DNA of 21,901 nt from Zygnema cylindricum (Eukaryota; Streptophyta; Zygnematophyceae; Zygnematales; Zygnemataceae): the NCBI GenBank assembly GCA_037447655.1, contig JBBHKE010001053.1, positions 150,509-172,409 of the forward strand, written 5' to 3'. The first letter of the stretch is position 1. Each line of letters begins with the position of its first letter. The position numbers and the translations under genes are program-made. The notes under the pieces were generated by a model, which searched no databases, was not told the origin of the DNA, and saw only the letters and a program-made list of their open reading frames with translations. Below, in pieces: positions 3,930 through 21,901 of this stretch.

Positions 3930-4227
3930 CTGTAGCACACACAAAAAAACGTCCCCTCTAAACAAAAAAATATGATGAACTCCAAAACAAGCAAACTGCT
4001 CACCTAATACAAAGGACAGGGGTCCCAAATCAACATTTTGAACTAGTGATTTTGCTCACATTCCTGGCACTCTCACATGCAATCAAGTCTTGTCTCCGTT
4101 TTCAAAGGAGGAACTGACAGGTTTGCTGCTAAAAGAGACTAAAAAGTCCTCAACAATCATTCACACAAGGCATCTCAGTTTGGCCTATCAGCCTATGAAT
4201 ACCAGTTAGTTATGGAATTTTATTTAC

Positions 4228-6396
4228 ATTCACATGTCGTCTCCCGATTTTAACTGCTGCCGCTAACTTCTGTAACTGCCAACGCGACAATTGTACTCTT
4301 CTCCTTGTGTCATCTTCCTCCACAGTTTCCTGCACCACCTGTGGTTTCTCCGGTACATTGGAGATATCAACTGGTGCCATGCTTATTTTTTCTTCACTCT
4401 CTTTCTGTTTTGGCTCTTTTTTCCCTAAGGAACTCGTTTGGCCTGTAATTACAGCTCCAGCTGTCACACCTAAAACTCCTAAGGCACCTGTCACTACAGA
4501 TGCCTCTTGCTTTTCTTTTGCCTGTCCCTCCTCTTCTCCACTGATTCCTACAGCCTCCAGCACTTCTTGCTCAACTCCCTGCTCTCCCTCCTGCCTCTCG
4601 CTAACCTTCTCGATCTCCAATTGGCCGGAGTCTGCCTGTCTAAGTTTTTCATTACCCACGCTATTCTTTCCATCCAAAAGTGAAGCCTCCAATTTCTGGG
4701 CTGTTGTCTGTACCTCTACCTCTTGGTCCCCTCCCTCTAATTGATCCTCCTCCTCCTCCTCATCCTCCTCCTCCTCATCCTCCTCGCCTTCATCTACAAT
4801 TTGCCTCAAAAATGCCGCTGTTGTCTCCAATTCATCGTACTTCAAATCCAAAAGCTGACAAAGTTTTTCCCCTCCATATTTAAAACCACCAGTACCCCCC
4901 ACATCCCCCTCTTCAATAACCTCCAATATCCTATCTACAACATCAAGTGCCAACTGTATCTCCTCTCCATCGGCCTCAATCTCTCCTCCTGCGTCCCTCT
5001 CTCCCTCCTCCACCTCCTTATTTATCTCCTCCAAACGATGCAGCATCTGACCAGTTTTCTTCACAACTGTCTCCACCTTTCTTGTCCACTCAAGCTCCTT
5101 CGCAATTTTCATTAACGTCTCCCCTCCAGGCTTTTTCCTTTCCCTCATTTTCACTAAAAGCTTATCAAACACACCGGCTGCCACCAGTATGTCCTCCACA
5201 TTATAATCGTCAACCTCAAAATTGTCGCTCTCCACTTCTTCCTCTCCCTCTCCCTCTCCCTCTCTTTCACCACCCTCAATTGAGCTCGCCACTGCACCAA
5301 CCTCCTCCTCCAAAGCCCCCGTCATCTCCTCCTTCCCCTCTCCTCGCTCTCCCAATCCCTCTGAATCCAATCCCACCATCTCCTCCCCCTTATCTCCACC
5401 AATTCCGAGCAGTTTCACTCCAACGATTTCTTTATCGGTAACTGTCGCCTTAACATCAATTACGTCTCCACCTTCTTCATCAGTCAACAACCCCAGATCT
5501 TCTCCATCCACATTATTTTCCAAACTCTCTCCTGACGCCATAATTTGCTCCAAAATATTACTCGCCACCTCCAAACCGTCCAAATCCACTCCAAGATTCG
5601 CTAAAAGCTCATCCCCTACCCCAGGTTGATTTTTCTCTCTTCTCTCATAAACCTTTCCCACTTGCTCCAAAACTTTCAAAGCCACCTGTACTTCGTCCTC
5701 ATCTAGCTCAAAAAGTTCGTCATTTTCAGCATTTTTGTCAACTATTTTCTCATCATCAGCAACAATTAAAGAAGAATCTTCTTCAACATCGGCGGAATCG
5801 ATGAAAAATTTAACATAAGATGCCGCAACATTAACCGCTTTTGTCCGTTTTGGTGACCACTTGAGTTCAGAAAACGGACCCCCTTTTTTGGCATTTTGCT
5901 CTCCAACAGTTCCTTCCATCTTTTCTAATAAGGACAAAAGAACCTCTTGAGCTCGTTGGAGCTCATTTCGATCAAAATCATCAAGACTCACACTTACATC
6001 TTCAAGTTCGTCTTCCGAGTCTTCAAAATATGAAAAAAAGTCTTCGTCATCGTCAACTTCATCTTGATCTTCATCTTCGTCCTTACTCCCTTTTTTAGAC
6101 TGTACAGACAGCCCTCTCTCTTTTGGCCCTCCTCCTCCTTCGTCCAAATCACTATCAGAATCTTCGTCTTCTTCCAGAAACCTTCGCCCTCCTGCTGCTT
6201 CAAGTGCTCTGTTAAGATCTTTTTCAAATTGCAACATTTCCTCTTCCGTGAGCTCGGCGTCCATATCAATATCATCTTCCCCTAAATCTTTCGCAAGTTG
6301 CTTGAACAAGTCATTAAGGGCTTTGTCAGTCATTTCCTCATCTTCGTCGTCATCCTCTTCTTCTTCCTCTTCTTCAGTTCGCTTTTGAGGGACCTT
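4228..6396 (-). CDS. OCP3: OCP3-like protein, exon 2 (long acidic, repeat-bearing)
   Basis: 723 codons without interruption. The acceptor is GTGCAG|AAG and the donor AAT|GTAAAT (4227-4222), both phase 0. The first part carries a Glu/Asp run followed by MTDKALNDLFKQLAKDLGED and LTEEEMLQFEKDLNRALEA, which match the conserved N-terminal block of OCP3 homologs. The last part carries LSRWQLQKLAAAVKIGRRH, the conserved block just before the exon 3 sequence, so the two ends bracket an OCP3 gene. Between them is a very long acidic insert with four degenerate helical repeats (5973-4789), Glu-rich runs and a Gly/Glu run. The Arabidopsis protein is about 350 residues in total, whereas exons 1-3 here already give 942 codons, so the middle is greatly expanded. 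The insert's function is unknown. Confidence 0.85.
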
Positions 6397-7043
6397 CTGC
6401 ACCATACAATACCACTCAATATTTGCATTCAGGTTTGTTTAAGGTTTTTAATGATAAACTTGAATAATGAAACAATTGAGCATAATAAAATTGAAAAAAG
6501 ATAGAATCGAATTGTTATACACTTGAATTATAACACAAATGACAGTAATCCAATTGAATAATAATACATTTTAATAATTAGGTTTAGCGTGTCTACTGAA
6601 TTGGCATACAATTTGATGAATAAACATTATTCCATAATCAGTCAAATATCTCACTCACAGAACATTCTGGCCATTTAAAACTTAAAAAAATAATAAATAG
6701 TAAAACAAGTCATCTTTTTGTCATCGATAAAATAACACTGAAATAAGGAGCGCCAATTCTTATCTGACACTCTCAGCCAAACGTCACTTGAAAAAAAAGA
6801 AATAAAAGGGCACACCAATATATCAAACAACGAGTGCTGCAATTAATAATTCAGTCATTAAGTTATAGAGCTTTAAAATAATAAAAGTCGAAAAACGTTG
6901 ATAACCCCCAACAGCTCATTCCGAATAATATACATAAAATAAATGAAATAAATATGGAAAATTTGAAGAAATATGATGCATATTATACAAAAATAGGTGA
7001 AATTGGAGAAATAGTAATTTCAAACTTTATTTAACTCACTCAC

Positions 7044-9744: not shown

Positions 9745-11250
9745 TGTTAGGGTTGTCATGCCGTAAAGCATTGGCGGGTATTATTGTTGAATCCTATACT
9801 AATTCGCGTGTATGTGACGTGATAGGTTCGTAATTTCTTTTACAGCTGAAGGTACAAGATGATCAAAGGTCGTATTACATTCACGTACGACACAACGGGA
9901 AGCCGCCGTGGAACTGGATTGCGGTTTGGCATCGGTTGCCAGGAACTCAAACGGCTCCAAATTTGACACATGGCTAAGTCGTGAACCCTCAAAGGTTCAT
10001 GCATTATTTTTGGTAGCATAGGGAGGGTTTTTATCCTCGATAAGAAAAAGATGTAAGGCATTTCGAGGCGGCCATGCAGCGACCGTCTCTAGAAACTGGC
10101 AACGTTTGCACATAGAAGCCTGCTTGCTCAAAGACATACAAGAATTAGTGTAGTTGTACGATAGGCAACAACATAGGATAAAAGCCATGTGGCTGCGTTG
10201 GAATAGTTGCAAATTACAACGCGGGAATCCAACAATGGGAATTTGTTGTTTTCTGGCAATCTTTTGTTATCGGAATTTGTCAAACTTGGTCCGGTTAGGG
10301 TTTCAGCCGTATATTTAGCATCAAGCTAATTGCTGAGTTAGGATTTATTTTCCGTATCCTTAGTTTTTGCTAGCGATTGTCTGTGAGCTTTCTATCTTTT
10401 CTTCTTTTGTACCTAAGTCCTTACTTAATCTACCGGCGTAAGTCAGCCTGCAAGGTTCCCCTCTTACCACTTGCCGTGGCTTATGAATCCTGGTGTACAA
10501 ATCTAGTGTTTTCTGGTTGCTTATACGTTGACTCCGCAGTCCAGCATCCTTCTAGTCTAACTTCGGAAGTGCCAGCCTTCTCGGCTTCTTCGTTCGGTTA
10601 CGGAGTGTTTGCTGTATGCTGGTTGGACTCCTAAAGGGAATATTGAAGACTTCAGGGCCTAGTGGCTACTGTCGCAAATATTCCAGTGGTGTAATTTGCA
10701 ACTGTCTTTTGCAGTCAGTATTAATTGGTGGTTTGGTTTTCTTTTCAGTCTAGTTTGTTTCTTTTGGTTGCTTTAATCTAAACGGGTTTCCAATTTCTAG
10801 GGTTTTGTTGTTTGGTGGACTCTGAGTTTGATATTTCTGATCTTGTTCGGAAATCCGGTATAGTTTCTTCTTTTTGTCTTCCTACCGGATTAACTCACTC
10901 AGAAAACCTAGCAAACCTAAAAACTTATAAAAAAAAAAAAAATCCATATTCAAAACCAAGAAAAAAAAAAACAAATATATATTCATTTAAATATATAAAT
11001 TAGCTTGCACGAATTATCACATAAAATTATAACTGCTTTAATAGTTGGGTAGAGCGTGGCTTAAAGCTGATACGCGTACCCTAACAGGCTACTAACTACG
11101 TTGGTATTTTGAGTTGTGATCTCTTCTCGACAATTCGGAATTGGAGGGAGGTTGGAGCATCGCTTGGAGACCTTACAGATCGCGCGAGGTGAGTAATCGG
11201 GTCCTTGTGGTTGCAGGCGCGTGATAGGTTGATTAAGCGCGATAACCTAG
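9745..11250. other. Non-coding region upstream of the retroelement leader
   Basis: No supportable gene. Notable contents are a 14-bp inverted repeat (10205-10218 and 10690-10703), two A-rich tracts (about 10929-10971), and a stretch resembling a tRNA D-arm/A-box at 11041-11060. If a 5' LTR exists it should lie here or just downstream, but nothing here matches the sequence that follows the 3' polypurine tract. Confidence 0.5.
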
Positions 11251-11700: not shown

Positions 11701-11754
11701 CCTGAGTAGGGTCCGGCATCTAGTTGCATCCAGATAAGACGACTGTCTGTTTAC

Positions 11755-13940
11755 ATGCCAACAGACTGGAACAATTTACCGTTTCCAGCTGGTACCACTA
11801 GGAGCTCCAGTCTTTACCGTGGACCGGATCGGGATTTGATTCCCGCCCGCTCACCTCCTGTCCAGCTTTTAGGTCATACTGGTCAGTATGATCGGTCTCA
11901 GCTTACGGGTTCACCCAACTCTAGATCTGGTATTACCACTACATATAGATCTACATCATCTGTCTCCTCATCCTCTTCCCATAGTTGGGGGGAAGATTCG
12001 GATATAGACTCCTTTGATATCCAGGATCTAAATCTACCACCTTCGCTTTTGCCTTTGAGCGGAAATATACACACAAACTCCAATTTCTATTTTGGGGATA
12101 TGGCCTCGCCCATAGACACCGGAGGAGGTAGAAATCAGTTTTGTTTTTCGGGTCTCAAAGACACTATGTCCTTGTCACATTTTCGAATGCTTTTCGATAC
12201 CGAGATGCGCGATCTCGCATTCCGGTGTCAAGACCGTTATGATTTACGGGTGGCTTTTTCGTTACTTGGGCGATACCTTAGGGGATCGGCCCTATCTCTA
12301 TATACACGGAAATATGCGGCAATTTGTGCTATGACAGAAATGGCACCCGCATATTCTGGATCTTTAGCCATAACAGGCAGTCCAGAAATTCTTTTCCAAG
12401 CTGCGGTACCCGCAGTTTATGACTCTGCAGGTGACGAAATTTCACCGGAAATACCTGAGGTCCCTCATCAGTTCGCCGTTGCAGCTCGGGCAGCAATTCC
12501 AGCTCGTCCAGCAATGCTGGTTCCTCTAAGGGATCCGGTATCGTTTGTCTTCAGTTAATTACAGGAAGAATACCGTATGCAGAATCCCGACCAGGATAAA
12601 GAACTAATGAATTTTGAACGTCGCCCAGGCGAAACCGCTCCGGCATTGCGAGCACGTATGGAAACATTACGTGAAGCACTGCCAGATCTCATGTCAGACG
12701 CGGAGGCTGTTCAGAAATTTGTGGGGCAATTCCCCACGCAATCTCGACGTTTCATTCAAAGCCATCTGACCGAGGCATATGGCCTCAAATTTACTTTCGA
12801 GCAGGCGGCAGAATACGCCGTACGATATGAAATGCAGACCAGCTGGTGGGACGCTCACGAGCGACCTAAGTCTTCTCCCAATGGAAACCCGAATCCTAAT
12901 CCTAACCCACGCAACCCATGGCCTAATCCGAGACCTCCAAGGGCTTCGGCCATGGGCACATTACCGACAAATCTCGGTGTTCGTATATGTTTTCGATGTG
13001 GTAACACTGGTCACGACGCACGCAGCTGTCCGGATAAGACCGCCACATGTACTCATTGTTATCAAACGGGTCATTATGTACATCGATGTCACATTAAAAA
13101 TTCCGATTTCAGTTATCAAAATCAAATCAAAAACGGCGGTATACCTGCTCGCTCGGCAAAATTGGTCACTCCACCCAAAGGGGTAGAGAAAGACAACCCT
13201 CCCAAAATCAGCAAGAGGGACCGAGAGAAAGCCGAGATGCAGGCTACCGTAGCGGCTATGATGAATGAGCAGTTTGCCGCGCTTATGGCGCAGGTCAAAC
13301 CGCAATTAACCGGAATGGCCCGAACTGTGGTCCATATGCCCTCTTTTGCTGGGCGATCCCTTCGAGAGTCCACTGTTCAACAGCGGGCAGCTCAGTTTAA
13401 AGGGACTCCCGATCATAATCGCGAGTCTAAACCCATTAACACACGAATCCCATTATCATTTGCCAAAGAACCTCGCTCACCTATTCCAGAATCGGCCTCA
13501 AGCATCACCGCGGAGGCGTTAACTATTTTAGAGAGGAGTATACAAGACACATATAAGGTCAAAGAACGTTTATCCATCCTGTCTACCATGCTTCCCGAGT
13601 TGGATAGCAACGAAAAACCTTTAGATCTAACTCCGTCAGCAGTTGCGTTACAAGCATTACAAAACCATCGTAATGCTCTCTCTCTTCAAGCTATTACTCT
13701 TGAAGAGCGGTCTAGCCTCACTCCTCACATCAGTTTTCTAGATAACAAATTGGGCGTTTTTACGGTTAATGGGTTTGCTCCATCACTTCCTCTCATGGAT
13801 ACAGGCGCAAAGCCAATTATCCTCGGTTCTGATTTTGCCATCAAAATAGGTCTTACAGCAGATAAGTTAGAACCCACTACCACACGTCTATTGACTTCCG
13901 CAGGTACCACAAGCCAGTCCTCGGTATTACGATATAACCA
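11755..13940 (+). pseudogene. Gag region (capsid-like and nucleocapsid), one in-frame stop
   Basis: The frame opens with ATG 11755, is broken by TAA 12556-12558 and continues in the same frame. The N-terminal ~100 residues are Ser-rich and disordered-looking. A capsid-like segment follows (FRMLFDTEMRDLAFRCQDRY and LLGRYLRGSALSLYTRKYA), then a Pro/Ala-rich stretch (about 12330-12550), then RRPGETAPALRARMETLREAL typical of the capsid C-terminal domain. Two CCHC zinc knuckles lie at 12988-13089 (CFRCGNTGHDARSC and CTHCYQTGHYVHRC), the nucleic-acid-binding nucleocapsid part. A spacer of about 200 residues leads to the protease. The stop could be a decayed Gln codon (CAA to TAA). Gag would form the virus-like particle that packages element RNA. 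Confidence 0.8.
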
Positions 13941-14110
13941 ATCTGTTTTCAGTTTCAGAGTCAGTCAGCGACGGAATTCGCAGAAATTTATGCTCACGCC
14001 TTGGTCACCAAGTGTAGTGACTATGAATGCTTGGTCGGTCAAGACGTTATTTTTCGAGTTGGGGGGGGGGTTGATATGCATGATCAGACATTTTCGTACA
14101 GACCGAACAA
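13730..14110 (+). pseudogene. Retropepsin-type aspartic protease, frameshifted
   Basis: The active-site motif LMDTGA has its catalytic Asp at 13798-13800, followed by the usual hydrophobic IILG strand. The C-terminal half (YECLVGQDV, then a Gly-rich flap and SYRP) is in the -1 frame, so one base appears lost between 13938 and about 13980; upstream of 13938 that frame is closed by TAA at 13935-13937. No canonical X-XXY-YYZ slippery heptamer is visible, so I read this as damage rather than programmed frameshifting. The protease would cleave the polyprotein. A run of ten G (14061-14070) lies in the C-terminal half. Confidence 0.75.
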
Positions 14111-16739
14111 CTTTCCGGAACGTAGAATTTGCTTACCCCTTATCTCGGCCCGGCAACCCATGCCTACTACGGCCCATTCGGCGCTGATCGTGCCAGCCTA
14201 TGCGGCAATTGGCATAGGTGCAGACATCCTTGAATCTGTTACAGCGGATGAAATCTCACCAGATCCCCCAGGTTTACCAGAATTATTTAGTACACAGGTA
14301 TTTATCATAAACTCTTCGGAGTTTGACCAGCTTTATAAATTTAGTATACCAATACCTTTATCTAGTATTCCAGATCCACCCTCTAGTGCGATAGATCCTT
14401 CCGGGTTCTTGCCCATTAAATGGACACCGGTCAATTTACAACCTCACCAAAACGGTCTCCTCATCTTAGACCTTTTTGCGGGAATAGGGACTTCACTTCT
14501 CTCTTGCCTTCGGAACGGTCTTCTGATAAAACATTACTATTCCGTAGATATTGATCCTTTGGCCAGACGCGCTCAGTTGCACCACTGTCAAGTCTTGCAC
14601 GAACAATATCCTCATCTCTTACCTCAATCTGCTTTTCACGATATGCATTCGGCGTTGCCACAGGATATCCGGCTAATAGGAAATCATCATTTAATGGAAT
14701 TGGAACCAATTGATCTCCTCTTTGCCGGATGGGAATGTCAGGGCATGTCCAGGGCCGGGAAAGGTTTAGGTCTCGCAAATCCATGTACTAAGTTGTTTTT
14801 CGAGGTGGTGCGTCTTATCCACTTCTTCCAAAATTTGGACCGTCCTTTTGGATACATCTTAGAGAACGTCGCAGCTTATAATGACCCTCGACCTACGGTC
14901 CTCGCAGATTATAAACGCATTAAATCATTAATTGGACCACCACTGATCATTGATGCCGCACGCCACGGTTCGTTGGCCCACCGGGTTCGTTCCAAGTGGA
15001 CTAACCTGGTGGACATGGGTCGGCTCCGAGAAGCTAACCTCGCTGTACGTCCACCTAATCTTTCCATCCAGGATGCACTTCTTCCATTTCATAAGGTCCA
15101 GACCTGTATACAGACTGACTGTCCTCCGGCATTTGGTCTTAACATCCCGGGCCAACCACTACGTGCACTGCCTACACTAGTTGCATATCCACACTCTCAC
15201 GCATACTCATATAATGGACCGGGCATGCTTCTGAATACTCATACAGGCAGCTTAGAGGAACCTACTGCCACAGAACGAGAACATCTCTTACATTTCATCT
15301 CAGGCACCACTGCTGCTCCGGGACTCACTGAGAGGCAGCGTTGCACCTTACTTGGTCGTGTCATGGATCCCCAATCACTGTCATTTGTATTACGCATGGG
15401 GTTCGCAGCTGGTCGATACGCACTGAACCATCCGTCTCAATCAGCTGGGGGGGGGCATACACCATTTAAACACACAGCTTCCAAGTCCTCACCTTCTCTT
15501 CGGGGTACAACTTTTCAGCTTGCCCTCTTTCCTTTCCCCGCTACGTCTGACAAAGATCCCACTATTTATGATTTTTTGGAACATAGTCACATGAGTTGGT
15601 CTCTCCCAGCATACACAGCCGCTAGATCTGAAGTACTGGTACGGGCATCGCCACACTGGACAGCTGCATTTCCGTCTAGAAGTTGGCATCACGCTGTAAA
15701 TTGTTTGCATCAACTTCCTGTCGAGTATGAGTTGGGTCACTCCTTGATAGCAGATGAACAGCTAGCATATGCACAAGCCATGGAAGCCATGACCATTAAC
15801 ACGCCTGAAAAATCGACATGGAAATTCGGAACGGGACTAACAAAAATTGAACACGAACTGTTAGATGAAGTCATAAACCGAAACGTAGACGCATTTGCTT
15901 TCTCCATGAAAGACTTAGGTCGACACACCACTTACAAAATGTCGATTGACTTGGAAGATGACAGACCTATATTTAAGCCCAAGCATCGTTTATCAGAAAC
16001 TGAATGGGAATCCGTGGACAAACGATGCGCAGAATTAGAAGAGGCTGGTCTGATTTATAGGTCCGATTCCACCTTTGCGGCCCCTACCGTCATGCCTCGT
16101 AAGAAAGACGCGGAGTGGAATTTTACAGAACGTCGCATGTGTGGAGACTATCGAGAACTTAACTCACGTACAATCCAGGACCGACATCCGATGCCGTTGG
16201 CCGAGGATATTTTCGATCACGTTGGAGGAGCTAAATATTTTAGCATCCTAGATCTGCGACAGGGATTTAATCAGATCGAAATAGAGGAAAAAGATCGACA
16301 TAAAATTGCATTTTGGGGTAGTGACGGACGTTGGGAATGGGCGGTTATGCCTTTTGGACTGAAAAATGCACCGGCAGTATTCCAGAAAGTCATGGACTCA
16401 GTCTTAGGGGGATGTAAGTTTGCCCGTTGCTATATTGATGATCTAATCATCGCTTCAGCCTCTATAGAAGAACATGCAGTGCATATAGAGTGGGTGTTGA
16501 AGGAATTAAAAAAGGTAGGACTTAAATGTCATCCTGCCAAATGTACCTTTGGGGCCGAAGGGGTTTCATACCTTGGGCACTTTATCTCATCCGAGGGAAT
16601 TACTCCACTAGAAGTCAAAGTGGAAGCAATTAGTAAACTACCGGCCCCAACTGATTTGACTAGCATGCGTGCATTTCTGGGGTTAGCCAATTATTACCGA
16701 CGGTTTGTTCCTAGTTCAGCACAGTTGCATCTCCATTAA
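13938..16739 (+). CDS. Pol segment: protease end, DNA methyltransferase, connector, reverse transcriptase
   Basis: About 930 codons without a stop, the longest intact piece of the element. Order: end of protease (to ~14110), a Pro-rich linker, DNMT (14454-15419), a connector of about 180 residues of unknown role containing a G9 run, then RT from about 15978. The frame ends at a stop at 16737-16739, caused by an apparent single-base loss near 16712-16724, because RT thumb/connection sequence continues in another frame. The DNMT sits in frame with both protease and RT, without a stop or splice signal between them, so it was part of the polyprotein and is not a later insertion into a dead copy. 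Confidence 0.85.
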   Translation, partial: PICFQFQSQSATEFAEIYAHALVTKCSDYECLVGQDVIFRVGGGVDMHDQTFSYRPNNFPERRICLPLISARQPMPTTAHSALIVPAYAAIGIGADILESVTADEISPDPPGLPELFSTQVFIINSSEFDQLYKFSIPIPLSSIPDPPSSAIDPSGFLPIKWTPVNLQPHQNGLLILDLFAGIGTSLLSCLRNGLLIKHYYSVDIDPLARRAQLHHCQVLHEQYPHLLPQSAFHDMHSALPQDIRLIGNHHLMELEPIDLLFAGWECQGMSRAGKGLGLANPCTKLFFEVVRLIHFFQNLDRPFGYILENVAAYNDPRPTVLADYKRIKSLIGPPLIIDAARHGSLAHRVRSKWTNLVDMGRLREANLAVRPPNLSIQDALLPFHKVQTCIQTDCPPAFGLNIPGQPLRALPTLVAYPHSHAYSYNGPGMLLNTHTGSLEEPTATEREHLLHFISGTTAAPGLTERQRCTLLGRVMDPQSLSFVLRMGFAAGRYALNHPSQSAGGGHTPFKHTASKSSPSLRGTTFQLALFPFPATSDKDPTIYDFLEHSHMSWSLPAYTAARSEVLVRASPHWTAAFPSRSWHHAVNCLHQLPVEYELGHSLIADEQLAYAQAMEAMTINTPEKSTWKFGTGLTKIEHELLDEVINRNVDAFAFSMKDLGRHTTYKMSIDLEDDRPIFKPKHRLSETEWESVDKRCAELEEAGLIYRSDSTFAAPTVMPRKKDAEWNFTERRMCGDYRELNSRTIQDRHPMPLAEDIFDHVGGAKYFSILDLRQGFNQIEIEEKDRHKIAFWGSDGRWEWAVMPFGLKNAPAVFQKVMDSVLGGCKFARCYIDDLIIASASIEEHAVHIEWVLKELKKVGLKCHPAKCTFGAEGVSYLGHFISSEGITPLEVKVEAISKLPAPTDLTSMRAFLGLANYYRRFVPSSAQLHLH
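14454..15419 (+). CDS. C5-cytosine DNA methyltransferase domain inside Pol
   Basis: Would transfer a methyl group from S-adenosylmethionine to C5 of cytosine in DNA. Motifs appear in the usual order. Motif I (SAM binding) is LDLFAGIG at 14466-14489. A motif II-like VDIDP follows. Motif IV, with the catalytic Cys, reads GWECQG at 14727-14744, where most enzymes have PCQ or PCN. Motif VI ENV is at 14862-14870. A motif VIII-like RHGSLAHRVRSKWTNL comes next. The motif IX-X region has PTATERE and LTERQRCTLLGR. About 320 residues, close to the size of a DNMT3-type catalytic domain. The order is linear, so it is not the rearranged DRM type, and no chromodomain is embedded, so it is not CMT-like. No frameshift or stop lies within it. 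Whether it is active is unknown. Confidence 0.88.
15978..16715 (+). CDS. Reverse transcriptase domain (gypsy type)
   Basis: Contains CGDYRELNSRTIQDRHPMPL, YFSILDLRQGFNQIEIEE with the first catalytic Asp, AVMPFGLKNAPAVFQKVMD, and YIDDLIIAS with the two catalytic Asp at 16434-16439. It then has SYLGHFIS and GLANYYRRFVP. All seven RT blocks are recognisable and the catalytic residues are present. It copies element RNA into DNA. The frame breaks just after YYRRFVPS, and the RT connection (VASPLNELLKK) is read one frame earlier. Confidence 0.92.
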
Positions 16740-17230
16740 ATGAACTCTTGAAGAAATCTGTCCCGTTCACGTGGGGACCCTCACAGATCGAGGCATTTCA
16801 GGGATTAAAAGACGCACTGTCCACCGCTCCCATCCTTCGTCCACCGAATCATAAGTTACCATTTTGCCTACAGACTGACTTTGGTAAGCCAGGTATTGCG
16901 GCCATCCTAACTCAGCGTGAACTCACAGGTGAAGAATATGTGGTGGCTTATGCCAGTCGAAGCAACAACCAAGCGGAATCAAATTACAGTAGTTATGAGG
17001 GAGAATGCCTTGCCGCAGTTTGGGGTATTGTGCATTTCCGACATTACCTTTATGGCAAGCCTTTTACCCTTCTTACTAACCATCAACCGTTGCATTGGCT
17101 CATGACCAATGACAAGCTATCCGGCAAATTAGCCCGTTGGGCTCTTATTTTACAGGAATATGATATGGAAATAATTCACCGACCCGGGCTCCTCAGCTTG
17201 AATGCCGACGGGCTCTCCAGGAATCCTTTG
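16725..17230 (+). pseudogene. RNase H domain with a catalytic Asp replaced
   Basis: Frame 2 relative to RT. Visible blocks are FTWGPSQIEAFQGLKDAL (RT-RNase H connection), QTDFGKPGIAAIL with the first Asp, YEGECLAAVWGI with the Glu, LLTNHQPLHWL, then HRPGLLSLNADGLSR with the last Asp. Gypsy RNase H normally has TDH at the fourth block. Here codon 17078-17080 is AAC (Asn), which should remove a metal-binding catalytic residue. GAC to AAC is a single G-to-A change. The domain would degrade RNA in RNA:DNA hybrids during reverse transcription. Confidence 0.85.
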
Positions 17231-17499: not shown

Positions 17500-18534
17500 A
17501 AGTCACCGGCACGTCCCACGACCGTCGGAGCGACTATCACTTATCAACCAAATTCATACTGACCTTGGACACTATGGCACCAAACAAACTTTGAGCTTGG
17601 TACAGGCACGGTATTGGTGGTCTGGCATGCAGGCTGATGTGGCGGCTGTGTTGCAAGAATGTAGCACCTGTGACCGGCTACGAACTTCATTTTCTAACCG
17701 ACAAACCTCCCTTCAGCCCTTGCCTATTTGGGGTCTCTTTTACAGGTGGTCGTGTGATCTTGCAGGTCCCTTTCCCATTTCTCGAAGGGGCAAGCAGTAC
17801 ATTATGATTATGATCGAAACTTTCAGCAAATGGGTGGAAGTGGTGGCCCTTTCACAGAAAACTGCCAGACTCACCACGGCTGCTTTCAAAGAGCATGTGC
17901 TTCTCCGATACGGAGCCCCCGCAGAAGTACTTACCGACCAAGGAACCGAGTTCCGCGGTGAATTTCGGAGATGTTGGACGAGGCGTTAATCGATTACCGG
18001 CGGACGAGCCGAGATCATCCTCAAGGAGACGGTTTGGTAGAGAGAGCAGTACAAACCTTTAAGCGTGCTTTGCGTAAACATTGCTTGGAAAAACAGATTA
18101 CAGTGTGGGATGAATCATTGGGATATATTGTCATGGGTTATCGCATGTCTGTACAGGCTAGTCTAGCAAATTTCAGCCCCTATTATGTGTTGTTTGGTCG
18201 AAAACCGCTACTAGGTAGGAATGTACAGAAAGCCGCGAGCTTACATCTACCTTTTATATCGGATTCTTTGTTTTTGGAAGAACTGACGAACCGAGCGTTG
18301 CTTTTCGCTAGAGAAATGCCCATGGCTTTTGAAAACTTGCATATTGCCCAACATCGCGACTCCTTACGGTTTGCAACAACTCGCAGTGGCAGTTATCGGC
18401 CGCAACAAAAACCCTTCCGGGTGGGGGATTACGTTTATTTGCGGCGGCAAACGTTTGATACACTCGACACGGATGTTTCAGCTCACATCTTGAGGATAAC
18501 AAAAATCGACCCGAATGGATTATTAAGCCTATAA
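17500..18534 (+). pseudogene. Integrase: HHCC, D-D-E core, GPY/F-like tail; one frameshift
   Basis: The zinc-binding domain has H (17555), H (17570), CSTC (from 17660). The catalytic core has Asp in CDLAGP (17756), Asp in LTDQGTEF (17936), and Glu in GDGLVERAV (18040) after a frameshift. The sequence GAATTTCGGAGATG at 17960-17973 appears to lack one base, after which the frame moves by -1. All D, D, E residues are present. The C-terminal part, GDYVYLRRQTFDTLDT to the stop at 18532-18534, resembles the GPY/F or SH3-like integrase tail. The protein would insert the cDNA into host DNA. The stop TAA is in frame with the PHD finger that follows. Confidence 0.85.
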
Positions 18535-18825
18535 GGGGCCGACACGCGAACTTTGCGGGAGCATTCAAAGAATTGTGCCCCCTGCTATCTACCCGATCTT
18601 TCCCACAGCATGGACCCTTCGCGGATGCCGATTACTGAGGCCACAGAGTGCCAGTTTTGCCGGCGATCTGACGGAGAAACAACAATGCTCCTTTGTGACT
18701 ATTGCAATCTAGGATTCCATATGGAGTGTTTGGTTCCACCTCTGCACACTATCCCGGCTGGACAGTGGTTTTGCCACGGGTGTCGCAATCTACCGGCTGT
18801 CCTTACCAGCTCCCCCGCAGGCTAA
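18535..18825 (+). CDS. PHD finger at the integrase C-terminus (after an in-frame stop)
   Basis: Same frame as the end of integrase, separated only by TAA 18532-18534, ending at TAA 18823-18825. Eight zinc ligands in the C4-H-C3 order of a PHD finger lie at 18649-18783: CQFC, CDYC, H in GFHMEC, C in MEC, then CHGC, with the usual LLCD before the third pair and Trp in QWFC. PHD fingers bind histone tails, often H3 unmodified or methylated at Lys4. Continuity across the stop, with no new start context and no spacer, suggests it was the polyprotein C-terminus. The first in-frame ATG after the stop is at 18610. It takes the position of the chromodomain in chromoviruses. Histone preference cannot be read by eye. 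Confidence 0.85.
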   Translation, partial: GADTRTLREHSKNCAPCYLPDLSHSMDPSRMPITEATECQFCRRSDGETTMLLCDYCNLGFHMECLVPPLHTIPAGQWFCHGCRNLPAVLTSSPAG

Positions 18826-18842
18826 GGAGCTGGGGGGGGGGG
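18826..18842 (+). other. Polypurine tract (second-strand primer)
   Basis: GGAGCT followed by eleven G, directly after the PHD stop codon. In gypsy elements the polypurine tract resists RNase H, primes plus-strand DNA and abuts the 3' LTR. The position fits, but the sequence after it (AATTCCATCC) has no TG start and no match upstream of Gag, so the LTR boundary is not proven. Confidence 0.6.
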
Positions 18843-19029
18843 AATTCCATCCTTACTTACTTAAGCTTGTTTTGTCTTTTCTTCCTTTGCTAAGTCCATG
18901 TTTTCGGAATAATTTGTTTGTTTTTCGAGCAGATTCATTTATTATTTCTTGCAGTATATATGCTTTGTACACCGATTGTGGTCACAAATACTGTACATAT
19001 GTAATGGTCATTCATTTTCTGGTGTTTTT
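18843..19029 (+). repeat. Possible remnant 3' LTR
   Basis: T-rich segment between the polypurine tract and a PBS-like motif (TGGCGACCCACGCGGGA, 19030-19046). It would be a short LTR if both borders are right, but it has no TG...CA ends and I find no second copy in the window. Low confidence. Confidence 0.2.
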
Positions 19030-19046
19030 TGGCGACCCACGCGGGA

Positions 19047-21901
19047 TGTGATGCATGCCATTCACGGTTGTACTATCATGCACGACATAATAAAAAAAAC
19101 ATTTTTTTAACTTTCTTGTTATCTTTTTGATATCGACATAATAAAAATTTATTCCATTGTAACGTGCTTAAGCGCACACATAGTGGCAAAGGCAACTAAA
19201 ACGAGTGTGTTTGATTAGACAAATTGAATCTCCATACCAATGAGGTAGTTAGTCAAACTAAAACTATGCACTGGAGTCTTTTCCTTCTCAATATCGGTTT
19301 TGTAATCAATATTTTGTAATATTGGTTTTACGATGATACACTCGCGGAATATGTGAAGCATTATCCAACTTTATTTCGTATAAAATAAAGCTTTGAGAAA
19401 AAATATTTTGTAAAAAATAAATAATTAGAATAAATATCTAGCGAGCCAGTATCCGAGAGTTAATAAAATTTGCACATAAAAAATCACATATAGGGTTATA
19501 TGGACAATCGTATCCGCAACCTTCTAATGCAGACGGGGACTTTCAAACTGAAAGCTATGTTGAAACCGAGCAACGGTCCAGTGATACAACTCAAATAAAT
19601 AACCCAAATAATAACACTAGATAGTCTAATTTAGTAGTGAGCGGGCAATTTGTGGGTATGGGGACCGTTATGACTCGAAGAAGACAAAAATTTAATCAAT
19701 GGTGGGAGAGCAAACAAAAGCCATTACGAAAATCTTCGAGACCAATGCAAGTTTTTTATACGTTCTACCACTCATTCAATGTTTGTCTGTTATAAGGTGT
19801 GGATAATCACTTAATCCACAAAACAATGAATCAAACCACAAAAAGGTTAGAGATCCATCGAAACATGAACACGTATTTGGTATTTTGTTTCCGTAAATTT
19901 GGGGTGGTTGTAGGGACTTATCGCAGGGTCTGAGCAAAAATTAGGTTGAACAAGAGACTAGTAGGAGAGGGGAGACTTGTAAGAGAGACAGACAATGGAA
20001 TAATCAATAACCATTTTTTCCAAAACACAATAATAAACCTCAAAATTGACAATAATTTAAAACAATGTATAAAGCTCAAAGCTCCTCGCTTACGACAGCT
20101 TGATGCTTTTAATTTTCAATTAACAATTTTTTGATGTAGGGGTAATATATTGTATGAGAAGATACCATAACTACACAACAATTTAAAAGGGTAAAAATAT
20201 TTTTTTCCCACTTAAGGTTAAACTTTATACAAAAACCCATAGATGACGACAACTCTATTGTATAAGGTAGTGGAGAGGTGATTCAACTTCCAAACTAGGA
20301 TGCAAAATGTAAGCAGATACAACACCCATAGGATCATTTTCCTCAGGGAAAACATTTAGTTTGAGTTTTTGGTTGGATTCGTTGTAAAAAATTACATTTT
20401 TGGAGCGACAAACAATGAGATGTGATTGTAGCCGCCAAGCATTTGCAGGTCTATAGTACGGTGTGATGTTGCGTAGGCCATAACTGATATTATTTTATTA
20501 GTGTAAGAGTTTCTTTTGTGACTCGAACCAATGTCGATTGTCAATTTGACAAAGTTTTCAAATAGGTCTCCTAAATCGCCAATTCATAATAGCTTAAATA
20601 ACACCCAAACATAACATCATGGTCTAAAAGTTTTGCGCCCCATCAAAGTATTGTAGATAGAAATTGTAAGGGTAAGAGTAAAAAGCAAGGACAAAGCTTG
20701 ATAGGTCCAAACATAATCGTGTGGGATAAACCACCCCGGAAACAATGGTGAAAAGGATTATAACAACGTTTTTCCTCTTATACTGTTTTTTGTGTTACAC
20801 GACATTTGCGAACGAGTGCGTTCAATGTTTTCAAAATTGAGTTAATAAAGTGTTTATTTAATTTTTTTGTGATATAGAAATTTGGCTTTTTGTTCAAATA
20901 ATGACACAAGATCATTCAAATTATTTAACGGGGCTTTAAAAGTGTTTTATATATTTTGAACATGTGATTCATTTGTTTTGTTTCTCCATCTATTTTTCGT
21001 TCGGAAGGTCGTGGACATAGACGGACGAGTAGCTAAACCTCCACATATTCCACGTTAGAAGACACTTTTGAACCGGAAATGCGTAATGAGCATTATCTAG
21101 TAAGTTGTGAAGTTTTCACACATCATAAAGAAATAATATAGTTGCACATGGAACATGTATTTATTTGGTAGTAAGTTAACGGCTCTTCACATTTGCTGTA
21201 GCAAATCAGTTTTTACTTGTCGCGGAAGGTTGTGTGATGAACTCTACTTCACGGAAAAATGATGTAAAATCTATGCTCACTTTGGGCGAATATTGTCAAA
21301 ATATCATCATATTTTGTAATATTCTAACCCTAACCGTTTTTGTAAGATTTTGCGTGGGTATGCCTCATGTGTTTTAATATAATTTATACCATTTTTATTA
21401 CATGATAACCATGTAAAATCTTGACAATGATTTTATAATCGTAAAAGTTGCATAAGAGTATTAATAACATTTGGGTGTCATGAGTATCGATTGTTTGAAG
21501 CTTTGAGGTCATATATTACCTTAGTTTGTTAATCTTGAAGTGGGGAATGTTGTTCTACAACTACTGTTGCAGGCGGAGAACCAGCAGTAGTAGTAGAAGT
21601 AGACATGAAAAACAGCAGAAACTATCAAAGTACCTACTCAACAGCCAACTTTGAACTGACATAGAATATGACTCAGAACCCCAATATGTTTCAAATTTTA
21701 AACAGTGATACAAAATACAGTAAACTGACAATTCCCATAATTGCAGCCCAAATGACTTAGTAAACTATAAGATATGATGTCTGGAAGTTTCCCAAAAACT
21801 GCCCTTAGAAAATCATATTCCCAAAACTGGACACTACAAAATTGGCTAAGTCTTAATTTATATACTCACAATGTGTATCTACTGATTTACACTAATTCGG
21901 G
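19047..21901. other. AT-rich intergenic sequence, no gene found
   Basis: About 2.9 kb without a supportable coding region, RNA gene or repeat. Short frames such as 19946-20134 have no recognisable content. A CAG/TAG-rich patch occurs near 21581-21603. Several AATAAA-like motifs are present but have no gene to serve. Confidence 0.6.

What the first reader, a model, noticed from the sequence alone, without database searches (positions are those of the whole stretch)
14454..15419. Cytosine DNA methyltransferase embedded in gypsy Pol between protease and RT
The domain carries motifs I, IV (with the catalytic Cys), VI, VIII-like and IX-X in order and is in one uninterrupted frame with protease before it and RT after it. 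DNMT-encoding retroelements are established for dinoflagellates and charophytes, where self-methylation of new copies was proposed. This window places such an element beside land-plant-type genes. Its long intact DNMT inside an otherwise broken element could mean selection on the DNMT or simply chance.
Basis: partly seen in the sequence, partly recalled or inferred. Interest (0 to 1): 0.88.

Follow-up and report, generated by a model that had tools for sequence, protein, structure and literature searches.

The report
Cytosine methyltransferase inside a gypsy retrotransposon
This stretch is one damaged copy of a large, recently active family of jumping genes in a green-lineage genome that carries, as a conserved part of its own replication protein, an enzyme domain of the kind that puts methyl marks on DNA; such elements were already known from one alga, and kin in a liverwort and another green alga turned up here.

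The parts
9754..10679 (+). Repeat A1 (5' terminal repeat; starts TGTCATGCC, ends just before the primer binding site)
   Evidence: 71-75% identical to the A repeats of copies C1344, C2310, C605, C1112; edge read
10205..10228 (+). Presumed self-primer sequence (5' end of the RNA, inferred), complementary to the PBS
   Evidence: 21 of 24 pairs with 10680-10703; covaries in 8 copies
10680..10703 (+). Presumed primer binding site directly after A1
11710..13761 (+). Gag-like region (ORFs 11710-12558 and 12559-14187) with a CCHC zinc knuckle at 12985-13032
   Evidence: zf-CCHC 0.0048, below cut-off; ORFs
13762..13941 (+). Aspartic protease, in a different frame from the DNMT in this copy
   Evidence: Asp_protease_2 0.0015, below cut-off, at 402-461 of the ORF
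14418..15425 (+). Dnmt3-type C5-cytosine methyltransferase domain; motif IV reads ECQ (catalytic Cys codon 14736-14738)
16125..16580 (+). Reverse transcriptase, same frame as the DNMT
   Evidence: RVT_1 1.8e-29
16772..17161 (+). RNase H (after a frame change at 16715-16739)
   Evidence: RT_RNaseH 3.2e-34, RT_RNaseH_2 4.1e-31
17522..17956 (+). Integrase, H2C2 zinc binding and catalytic core (frame change follows at 17962-17989)
   Evidence: Integrase_H2C2 1.5e-15, rve 4.7e-10
18649..18783 (+). PHD finger ending the polyprotein (in the same open frame as RT and IN in copy C1344)
   Evidence: PF00628 9.7e-12; C1344 3.1e-10; PDB match PHF12 8.2e-16
18832..18842 (+). G-run at the place of a polypurine tract, just before repeat B
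   Evidence: sequence; a G-run stands before B1 in 7 of the 8 copies printed
18840..19087 (+). Repeat B (ends CATGCACGACA); the A2-B2 part that follows it in full copies is absent here

Best explanation
The window holds one decayed copy of a Ty3/gypsy-type element in which a Dnmt3-derived C5-methyltransferase is a standing, selected part of Pol (shown). A sister copy, C1344, has gag region-protease-DNMT-RT-RNase H-integrase-PHD in one open frame (shown). Reverse transcription is probably self-primed: the RNA's 5' end would pair with a site just behind repeat A (covariation shown, priming inferred). The integrated form A1-body-B1-gc-A2-B2 has TG...CA outer ends and 4-bp target duplications (shown in 3 of 5 copies), so integrase inserts it (inferred); the simplest route is that the LTR is B-gc-A, two LTRs are joined end to end, and integrase opens the CA-gc-TG site inside one of them (inferred). 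The DNMT most likely methylates the element's own double-stranded cDNA in the particle or nucleus, so that the new copy arrives already marked like the host's silent DNA, while the PHD finger helps integrase choose chromatin (inferred; I give self-methylation of cDNA about 0.45, any catalytic role on DNA about 0.7).
Against: No activity shown. The Pro before the catalytic Cys is Glu here. The Klebsormidium gypsy DNMT gave no methylation in yeast, called inconclusive by its authors because DNMT3B also failed (PMC5890265, section 10). CG/CHG decay can come from host enzymes alone, and transversions are raised too (CHG p=4e-6, CG p=0.03), so the spectrum is not clean. Two of five copies lack a clear 4-bp duplication, and so does the window (GGGT against TAAT). 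The 22 of 100 listed junctions that lie within 12 kb of a listed DNMT are all on its 3' side; a two-LTR circle opened at random should give the other form half the time, so the route must be polar in a way I cannot explain. Copies without the DNMT were not looked for with success (RT search unanswered).
Confidence: 0.65

Rival explanations
1. The DNMT acts in trans on the host genome or on chromatin at the insertion site (with the PHD finger as aiming part), not on the cDNA.
For: PHD finger in the same polyprotein; its best PDB matches are PHDs of chromatin proteins (PHF12, KDM5-type Lid, BAZ2B); mammalian DNMT3 enzymes are themselves regulated by a PHD-like histone reader (recalled).
Against: No data on location; an element that methylates its host at large would be costly (inference), and Klebsormidium, which has such elements, has a land-plant-like methylome (PMC5890265, section 9).
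Confidence: 0.2
2. The DNMT is kept for a non-catalytic job, such as nucleic-acid binding or polyprotein folding.
For: Glu instead of Pro beside the catalytic Cys in 18 of the 28 relatives whose motif could be read (4 of 32 not readable); no activity of the Klebsormidium domain in yeast.
Against: The Cys, ENV, AHR.R and motif I sites are largely kept among relatives and in copies; dN/dS close to RT's.
Confidence: 0.15
3. The DNMT methylates RNA (the element's genomic RNA).
For: Suggested by de Mendoza et al. for the LINE type (section 11).
Against: Known RNA C5-MTases of this fold are DNMT2 (recalled), while this one is closest to DNMT3, a DNA enzyme.
Confidence: 0.08
4. Split repeats are copied as such by a DIRS/PAT-like templated circle, with no end-joined two-LTR intermediate.
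For: Same A1-B1-A2-B2 layout as PAT elements (PMC4157794 passages); strict 3' position of the junction, 22 of 22 near a DNMT.
Against: The A2|B2 joint differs by a base or two in C1344, C1915, C2310, C605 and C449, and the A2 match stops about 230 (C1407) and 430 (C232) bases short of the A end, as end joining would give; integrase and 4-bp duplications instead of a tyrosine recombinase.
Confidence: 0.3
5. A host DNMT gene or fragment fused to this one copy by chance.
For: Only that the window copy is broken elsewhere.
Against: At least 120 genomic places, the same order in the 30 copies examined, homologous Pol proteins in other hosts.
Confidence: 0.01

Closest known systems
KnitGypsy-Dnmt3 of Klebsormidium nitens (de Mendoza et al. 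2018, PMC5890265; sections 9, 10, 11 and passages read)
   Same: Dnmt3-type, unrearranged DNMT inside gypsy Pol; repeat structure like DIRS with gypsy domains (Fig. 4 legend); purifying selection on the DNMT (Ka/Ks < 0.2 there); direct sequence kinship (P0008, E=2e-53).
   Different: Another host (K. nitens protein P0008 is 36% identical); motif IV ECQ, not PCQ; PHD finger (the word PHD is absent from that paper's main text); primer pairing, 4-bp duplications and the CA-gc-TG junction are described here.
SymbioDIRS-Dnmt3 and SymbioLINE-Dnmt of Symbiodinium (same paper)
   Same: Retroelements carrying a DNMT; SymbioDIRS domains methylate CG in yeast.
   Different: DIRS and LINE elements; the paper calls the acquisitions independent.
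PAT/DIRS tyrosine-recombinase elements (PMC4157794, passages)
   Same: A1-body-B1-A2-B2 split direct repeats.
   Different: They use a tyrosine recombinase without target duplication; here a DDE integrase and 4-bp duplications. Their MT is another enzyme (adenine type; PMC5890265 discussion).
Tf1/Sushi and plant Tcn1 gypsy elements (PMC6317226, passages)
   Same: Predicted self-priming of reverse transcription.
   Different: Chromoviruses, usually with a chromodomain; here a PHD finger. RT kinship to them was not tested.
Mammalian DNMT3A/B/C catalytic domain
   Different: About 25% identity; no ADD or PWWP match in the Pfam scans of the element's ORFs; ECQ where DNMT3 has PCN.

Membership tests
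C5-cytosine methyltransferase (PF00145) | Profile match above the curated cut-off | tested here: met
   42.9 bits against 22
C5-cytosine methyltransferase (PF00145) | Catalytic Cys of motif IV, ENV of motif VI, R.R of motif VIII, motif I, in order | tested here: met
   (motif names recalled)
Canonical motif IV PCQ/PCN (usual in the family as recalled; not used here to define it) | Pro before the catalytic Cys | tested here: not met
   ECQ here and in 18 of 28 readable relatives; lowers the claim of ordinary activity, not of kinship
Dnmt3 family | Closer to DNMT3 than to other C5-MTases by sequence | tested here: met
   DNMT3A 4.3e-23; 4onj 2.8e-11; DRM2 2.7e-9; HhaI 2.8e-7 (60 of 71 rows shown); DNMT1/CMT are not among the rows shown, which excludes nothing
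Dnmt3 family | Grouping with host DNMT3 genes in a tree | not tested
   no host DNMT3 sequences were put in the trees
DRM (plant) | Rearranged motif order | tested here: not met
   motif I at 14469, C-terminal motif at 15348
Ty3/gypsy LTR element | Order PR-RT-RH-IN with H2C2 and DDE core | tested here: met
   the protease match is below Pfam's cut-off
Ty3/gypsy LTR element | Short target duplication at TG...CA ends | tested here: inconclusive
   4 bp in 3 of 5 copies with both ends seen; absent in the window copy
KnitGypsy-Dnmt3 kind | Dnmt3 in Pol of gypsy, under purifying selection, DIRS-like repeats | tested here: met
   repeats seen in sister copies, the window has only A1 and one B
DIRS/PAT | Tyrosine recombinase | tested here: not met
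   no such domain in the Pfam scans of the window ORFs or of the two C1344 ORFs; an integrase is present
Chromovirus | Chromodomain at the C-end of integrase | tested here: not met
   a PHD finger stands there
Tf1-like self-priming | PBS complementary to the RNA 5' end | tested here: inconclusive
   complementarity and covariation seen; the transcript start is not known

The most novel reading that the evidence does not exclude
DNMT-gypsy elements are an old lineage of the whole green line, from chlorophytes (Haematococcus) through charophytes to a land plant (Marchantia), that carries both a writer (Dnmt3) and a reader (PHD) of chromatin marks, has moved its DNMT once from between protease and RT to between RNase H and integrase, primes itself, and integrates a two-LTR joined form through an attachment site inside its LTR.
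Probability: 0.45. Interest if true: 0.78.

Novelty: new member of a known kind. Interest (0 to 1): 0.58.

Why it matters
Why a parasite would carry the enzyme that its host uses to silence parasites is unsolved. The finding itself is a further case of a published kind, but the family is large and young enough to measure selection, and its kin in Marchantia polymorpha, a plant with genetics and methylomes, would make the question open to direct test. The joined-LTR form with an integrase could also explain why such gypsy elements look like DIRS elements at their ends.

Tried and rejected
Insertion of a DNMT into this copy alone: rejected. DRM or bacterial identity of the domain: not favoured. 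'Broken element with a specially preserved DNMT': stops per 1000 codons in 30 copies are 4.7 in DNMT, 4.6 in the spacer before it, 5.4 in the linker and 7.6 in RT, so the DNMT is not singled out after insertion. Conventional LTRs in the window: none found; the A and B repeats appeared only when other copies were fetched. IMG/VR scan with the window DNMT: no relative. tRNA genes: none. A two-LTR circle opened at random: in conflict with 22 of 22 junctions on the 3' side. In the primer test eleven rows were tried: C1407 and C46, whose fetched 5' pieces show no A1 match, and C2526 gave no pair above the shuffle level and were left out; for the window the script's own best pick was another site, and I placed the row at the site found; partners were picked as the longest complementary run, which favours pairing (runs 15 to 21 in the seven others, shuffles 6 to 11). 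For 'relatives that lack the DNMT' the database rows near the window's RT mostly begin just before RT and cannot tell. The search of the own genome for RT was asked nine times and never answered, so copies without the DNMT are untested. A whole-protein count of motif IV is cruder than that and gives ECQ 17, PCQ 7, PCE 2 and six unread or false of 32. DNMT1, CMT and DNMT2 did not appear among the structure rows shown, which excludes nothing. Library searches for print (full text of open papers, mostly no subscription journals, no preprint library): KnitGypsy is named in PMC5890265 alone of the 19 papers listed; no listing or passage seen describes a Marchantia or Haematococcus DNMT-gypsy. PMC12344493 (passages) speaks of DNMT3 members in LTR Copia and DIRS elements of streptophytes and dinoflagellates, citing the 2018 paper; I did not see its trees or supplements, so it may hold more of this kind.

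Corrected on recheck: the 30 copies were picked by their DNMT, so that they keep it is given and only the order and spacing count; 16, not 14, of 24 primer positions vary; the confidence was lowered from 0.66 to 0.65 for the untested DNMT-less copies.
Full report
What is there. ORF 13938-16739 (+), 933 codons, holds a C5-methyltransferase and a reverse transcriptase in one frame (PF00145 5.3e-11, RVT_1 1.8e-29). Before it lies a gag-protease ORF in another frame (12559-14187), behind it RNase H, integrase and, in a separate small ORF, a PHD finger (18649-18783, PF00628 9.7e-12).

Family in the own genome. The window is G000:C783:150509-172409 of a genome of 352.8 Mb in 2689 contigs. The DNMT has at least 120 places, of 65% identity or more (the search scored 120 of 1861 candidates, so this is a lower bound). 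The 30 best were cut out; they were picked by the DNMT, so its presence is given. In them the RT segment follows at the same spacing (90% or more of it in 29, 83% in one) and a protease match lies in the 1500 bases before the DNMT in 28. Copies without the DNMT could only be sought by RT, and that search did not complete. dN/dS by Nei-Gojobori over pairs with dS 0.4-0.8 (ratio of summed values): DNMT 0.128 (70 pairs), RT 0.123 (103), protease-DNMT spacer 0.185 (94), linker 0.351 (135); for dS 0.2-0.4: 0.241, 0.190, 0.331, 0.421; for dS under 0.1: 0.57, 0.49, 0.85, 0.80 (7 to 13 pairs each), as expected of copies that decay after insertion. Codons with stops or gaps and pairs with under 40 synonymous sites were dropped; pairs share copies, so they are not independent. 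A second DNMT-gypsy subfamily, 40-42% identical, lies in the same genome (L001, L002, L003, L006, L008); its copy in L006 has PCQ.

Ends of the element. Ten copies were compared as separate 5' and 3' halves. Eight show the B repeat twice (matched over 143-243 bp) and seven the A repeat twice, in the order A1-body-B1-A2-B2; C46 and C1112 show neither. B1 and A2 are joined by CACGACA-gc-TGTCATGCC; the junction with any two spacer bases occurs at 182 places, reversed control 0. The spacer is GC in 69, AC in 15 and GT in 10 of the 100 listed (my count of the list). Of these 100, 22 lie within 12 kb of one of 121 listed DNMT places, and all 22 are downstream on the same strand, 14 of them at 3.1-3.9 kb. 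The outer ends are TG and CA; of five copies with both outer ends in view, three have a perfect 4-bp duplication (TTGG, CCCT, CCAT), C449 and C2526 do not. A1 and A2 are identical over 931 bp in C1344 and 99.5% alike over 1475 bp in C1915, so the family moved recently; in five others they are 80-97% alike. The window copy has A1 (9754-10679) and one B (18840-19087) and no duplication at its edges (GGGT, TAAT).

Priming. Right behind A lies a site complementary to a stretch 451-553 bases upstream inside A. In eight copies (window included) the complementary stretches differ in sequence but stay paired: 126 of 144 cells in register against 25 to 52 when slid by 1 to 3; 16 of 24 positions show two or three kinds of Watson-Crick pair. 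C232 and C1915 share one sequence. Three further rows gave no pair. Primer sites for tRNAs were not sought. Self-priming is what Tf1/Sushi and Tcn1 elements are said to do (PMC6317226, passages).

A model for the ends. If the LTR is B-gc-A, it starts behind the G-run and stops at the primer site, as an LTR should; A2|B2 is then an LTR-LTR joint, which varies by a base or two among C1344, C1915, C2310, C605 and C449 and lacks the last 230 and 430 or so bases of A in C1407 and C232; C2526 is unclear. The integrated form is then a two-LTR molecule opened at CA-gc-TG. The strict 3' position of the junction is not explained by random opening.

Methylation trace. In seven trios drawn from the 30 copies, C-to-T change is 6.3% at CG (148 of 2355), 6.5% at CHG (148 of 2277) and 3.0% at CHH (254 of 8602); Fisher p about 1e-12 to 1e-13 against CHH. 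Transversions are raised as well (CG 3.2%, CHG 4.3%, CHH 2.4%), so part of the effect is not deamination. This speaks for methylated copies, not for who methylates them.

Spread. Searches (DNMT region; RT region; 120 of 642 rows listed) bring kin from Klebsormidium, Closterium, Mesostigma, Haematococcus and Marchantia, besides many unnamed contigs. The two Marchantia polymorpha proteins (P0152, cluster with a 29.6-Mb contig; P0160, 870-kb contig) have DNMT before RT and RNase H. The Haematococcus protein (16-Mb contig) has RT-RNase H-DNMT-PHD. So there are two architectures: type I with the DNMT before RT, and type II with the DNMT behind RNase H and, where integrase is seen, before it (P0002, P0003, P0006, P0013, P0014, P0020, P0032; also P0163). 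In the DNMT tree (50 rows, unrooted) 18 rows that hold the type II ones form one group (100/98), next to type I row P0102 (98/90); some of the 18 are too short to show their order. The RT tree (87 rows) puts the DNMT-bearing rows outside a 15-row group of other gypsy elements, with weak deep forks and long type II branches. One relocation is the simplest reading; the trees have no host DNMT3 and do not prove one capture.

Host. The neighbouring gene is a farnesyltransferase alpha subunit: best hit an unnamed protein at 74%, then rows at about 40%, of which the named ones are seed plants (60 proteins). The host is a streptophyte; I infer an alga, its name is not known.

How it likely works and how sure. 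Shown: fold prediction, motifs, selection, order, split repeats in sister copies, covarying primer site, recent movement. Inferred: catalysis, cDNA as substrate, self-priming, two-LTR route, PHD as chromatin reader. The published Klebsormidium domain was inactive in yeast, which its authors call inconclusive. I hold cDNA self-methylation at about 0.45.

Novelty. The kind is published (PMC5890265; sections 9, 10, 11 and passages read). The window element is a new member. The PHD finger, the priming, the duplications, the two architectures and the land-plant and chlorophyte kin were not found in the papers and passages that I saw (searches named under Tried and rejected); supplements were not open to me.

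Noticed in passing
P0152, P0160 (Marchantia polymorpha): Annotated Marchantia proteins are DNMT-gypsy Pol pieces (DNMT-RT-RNase H); a Marchantia methylome paper (PMC5784723, passages) lists five host DNMTs and the passages seen do not mention these.
   Followed up: partly
P0032 (Haematococcus lacustris) and P0002, P0003, P0006, P0014, P0020: Second architecture with the DNMT behind RNase H.
   Followed up: partly
P0014 residues 701-735: A G-patch domain (3e-5) between DNMT and integrase in one type II element.
   Followed up: no
P0121, P0148 (JGI): Retroelement polyproteins are named 'site-specific DNA-cytosine methylase' in metagenome annotation.
   Followed up: no
P0165: A gypsy polyprotein is filed under a bacterial MAG (Chthonomonadaceae), probably eukaryotic contamination.
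   Followed up: no
own genome, 100 listed junctions: Only 22 of 100 B-gc-A junctions lie within 12 kb of a listed DNMT place; the others may be unlisted copies, decayed copies or DNMT-less kin. Spacer bases other than GC are mainly AC or GT, which would fit CHG-type decay of CAGCTG.
   Followed up: partly
L045 (copy C46, reversed) 134-1023 and 5333-6222: Two direct repeats of 890 bp, 97.8% alike, around a long open frame, perhaps a nested element.
   Followed up: no
window 4210-6438 (-): A 742-codon open frame of acidic, repetitive make-up without a Pfam match.
   Followed up: no
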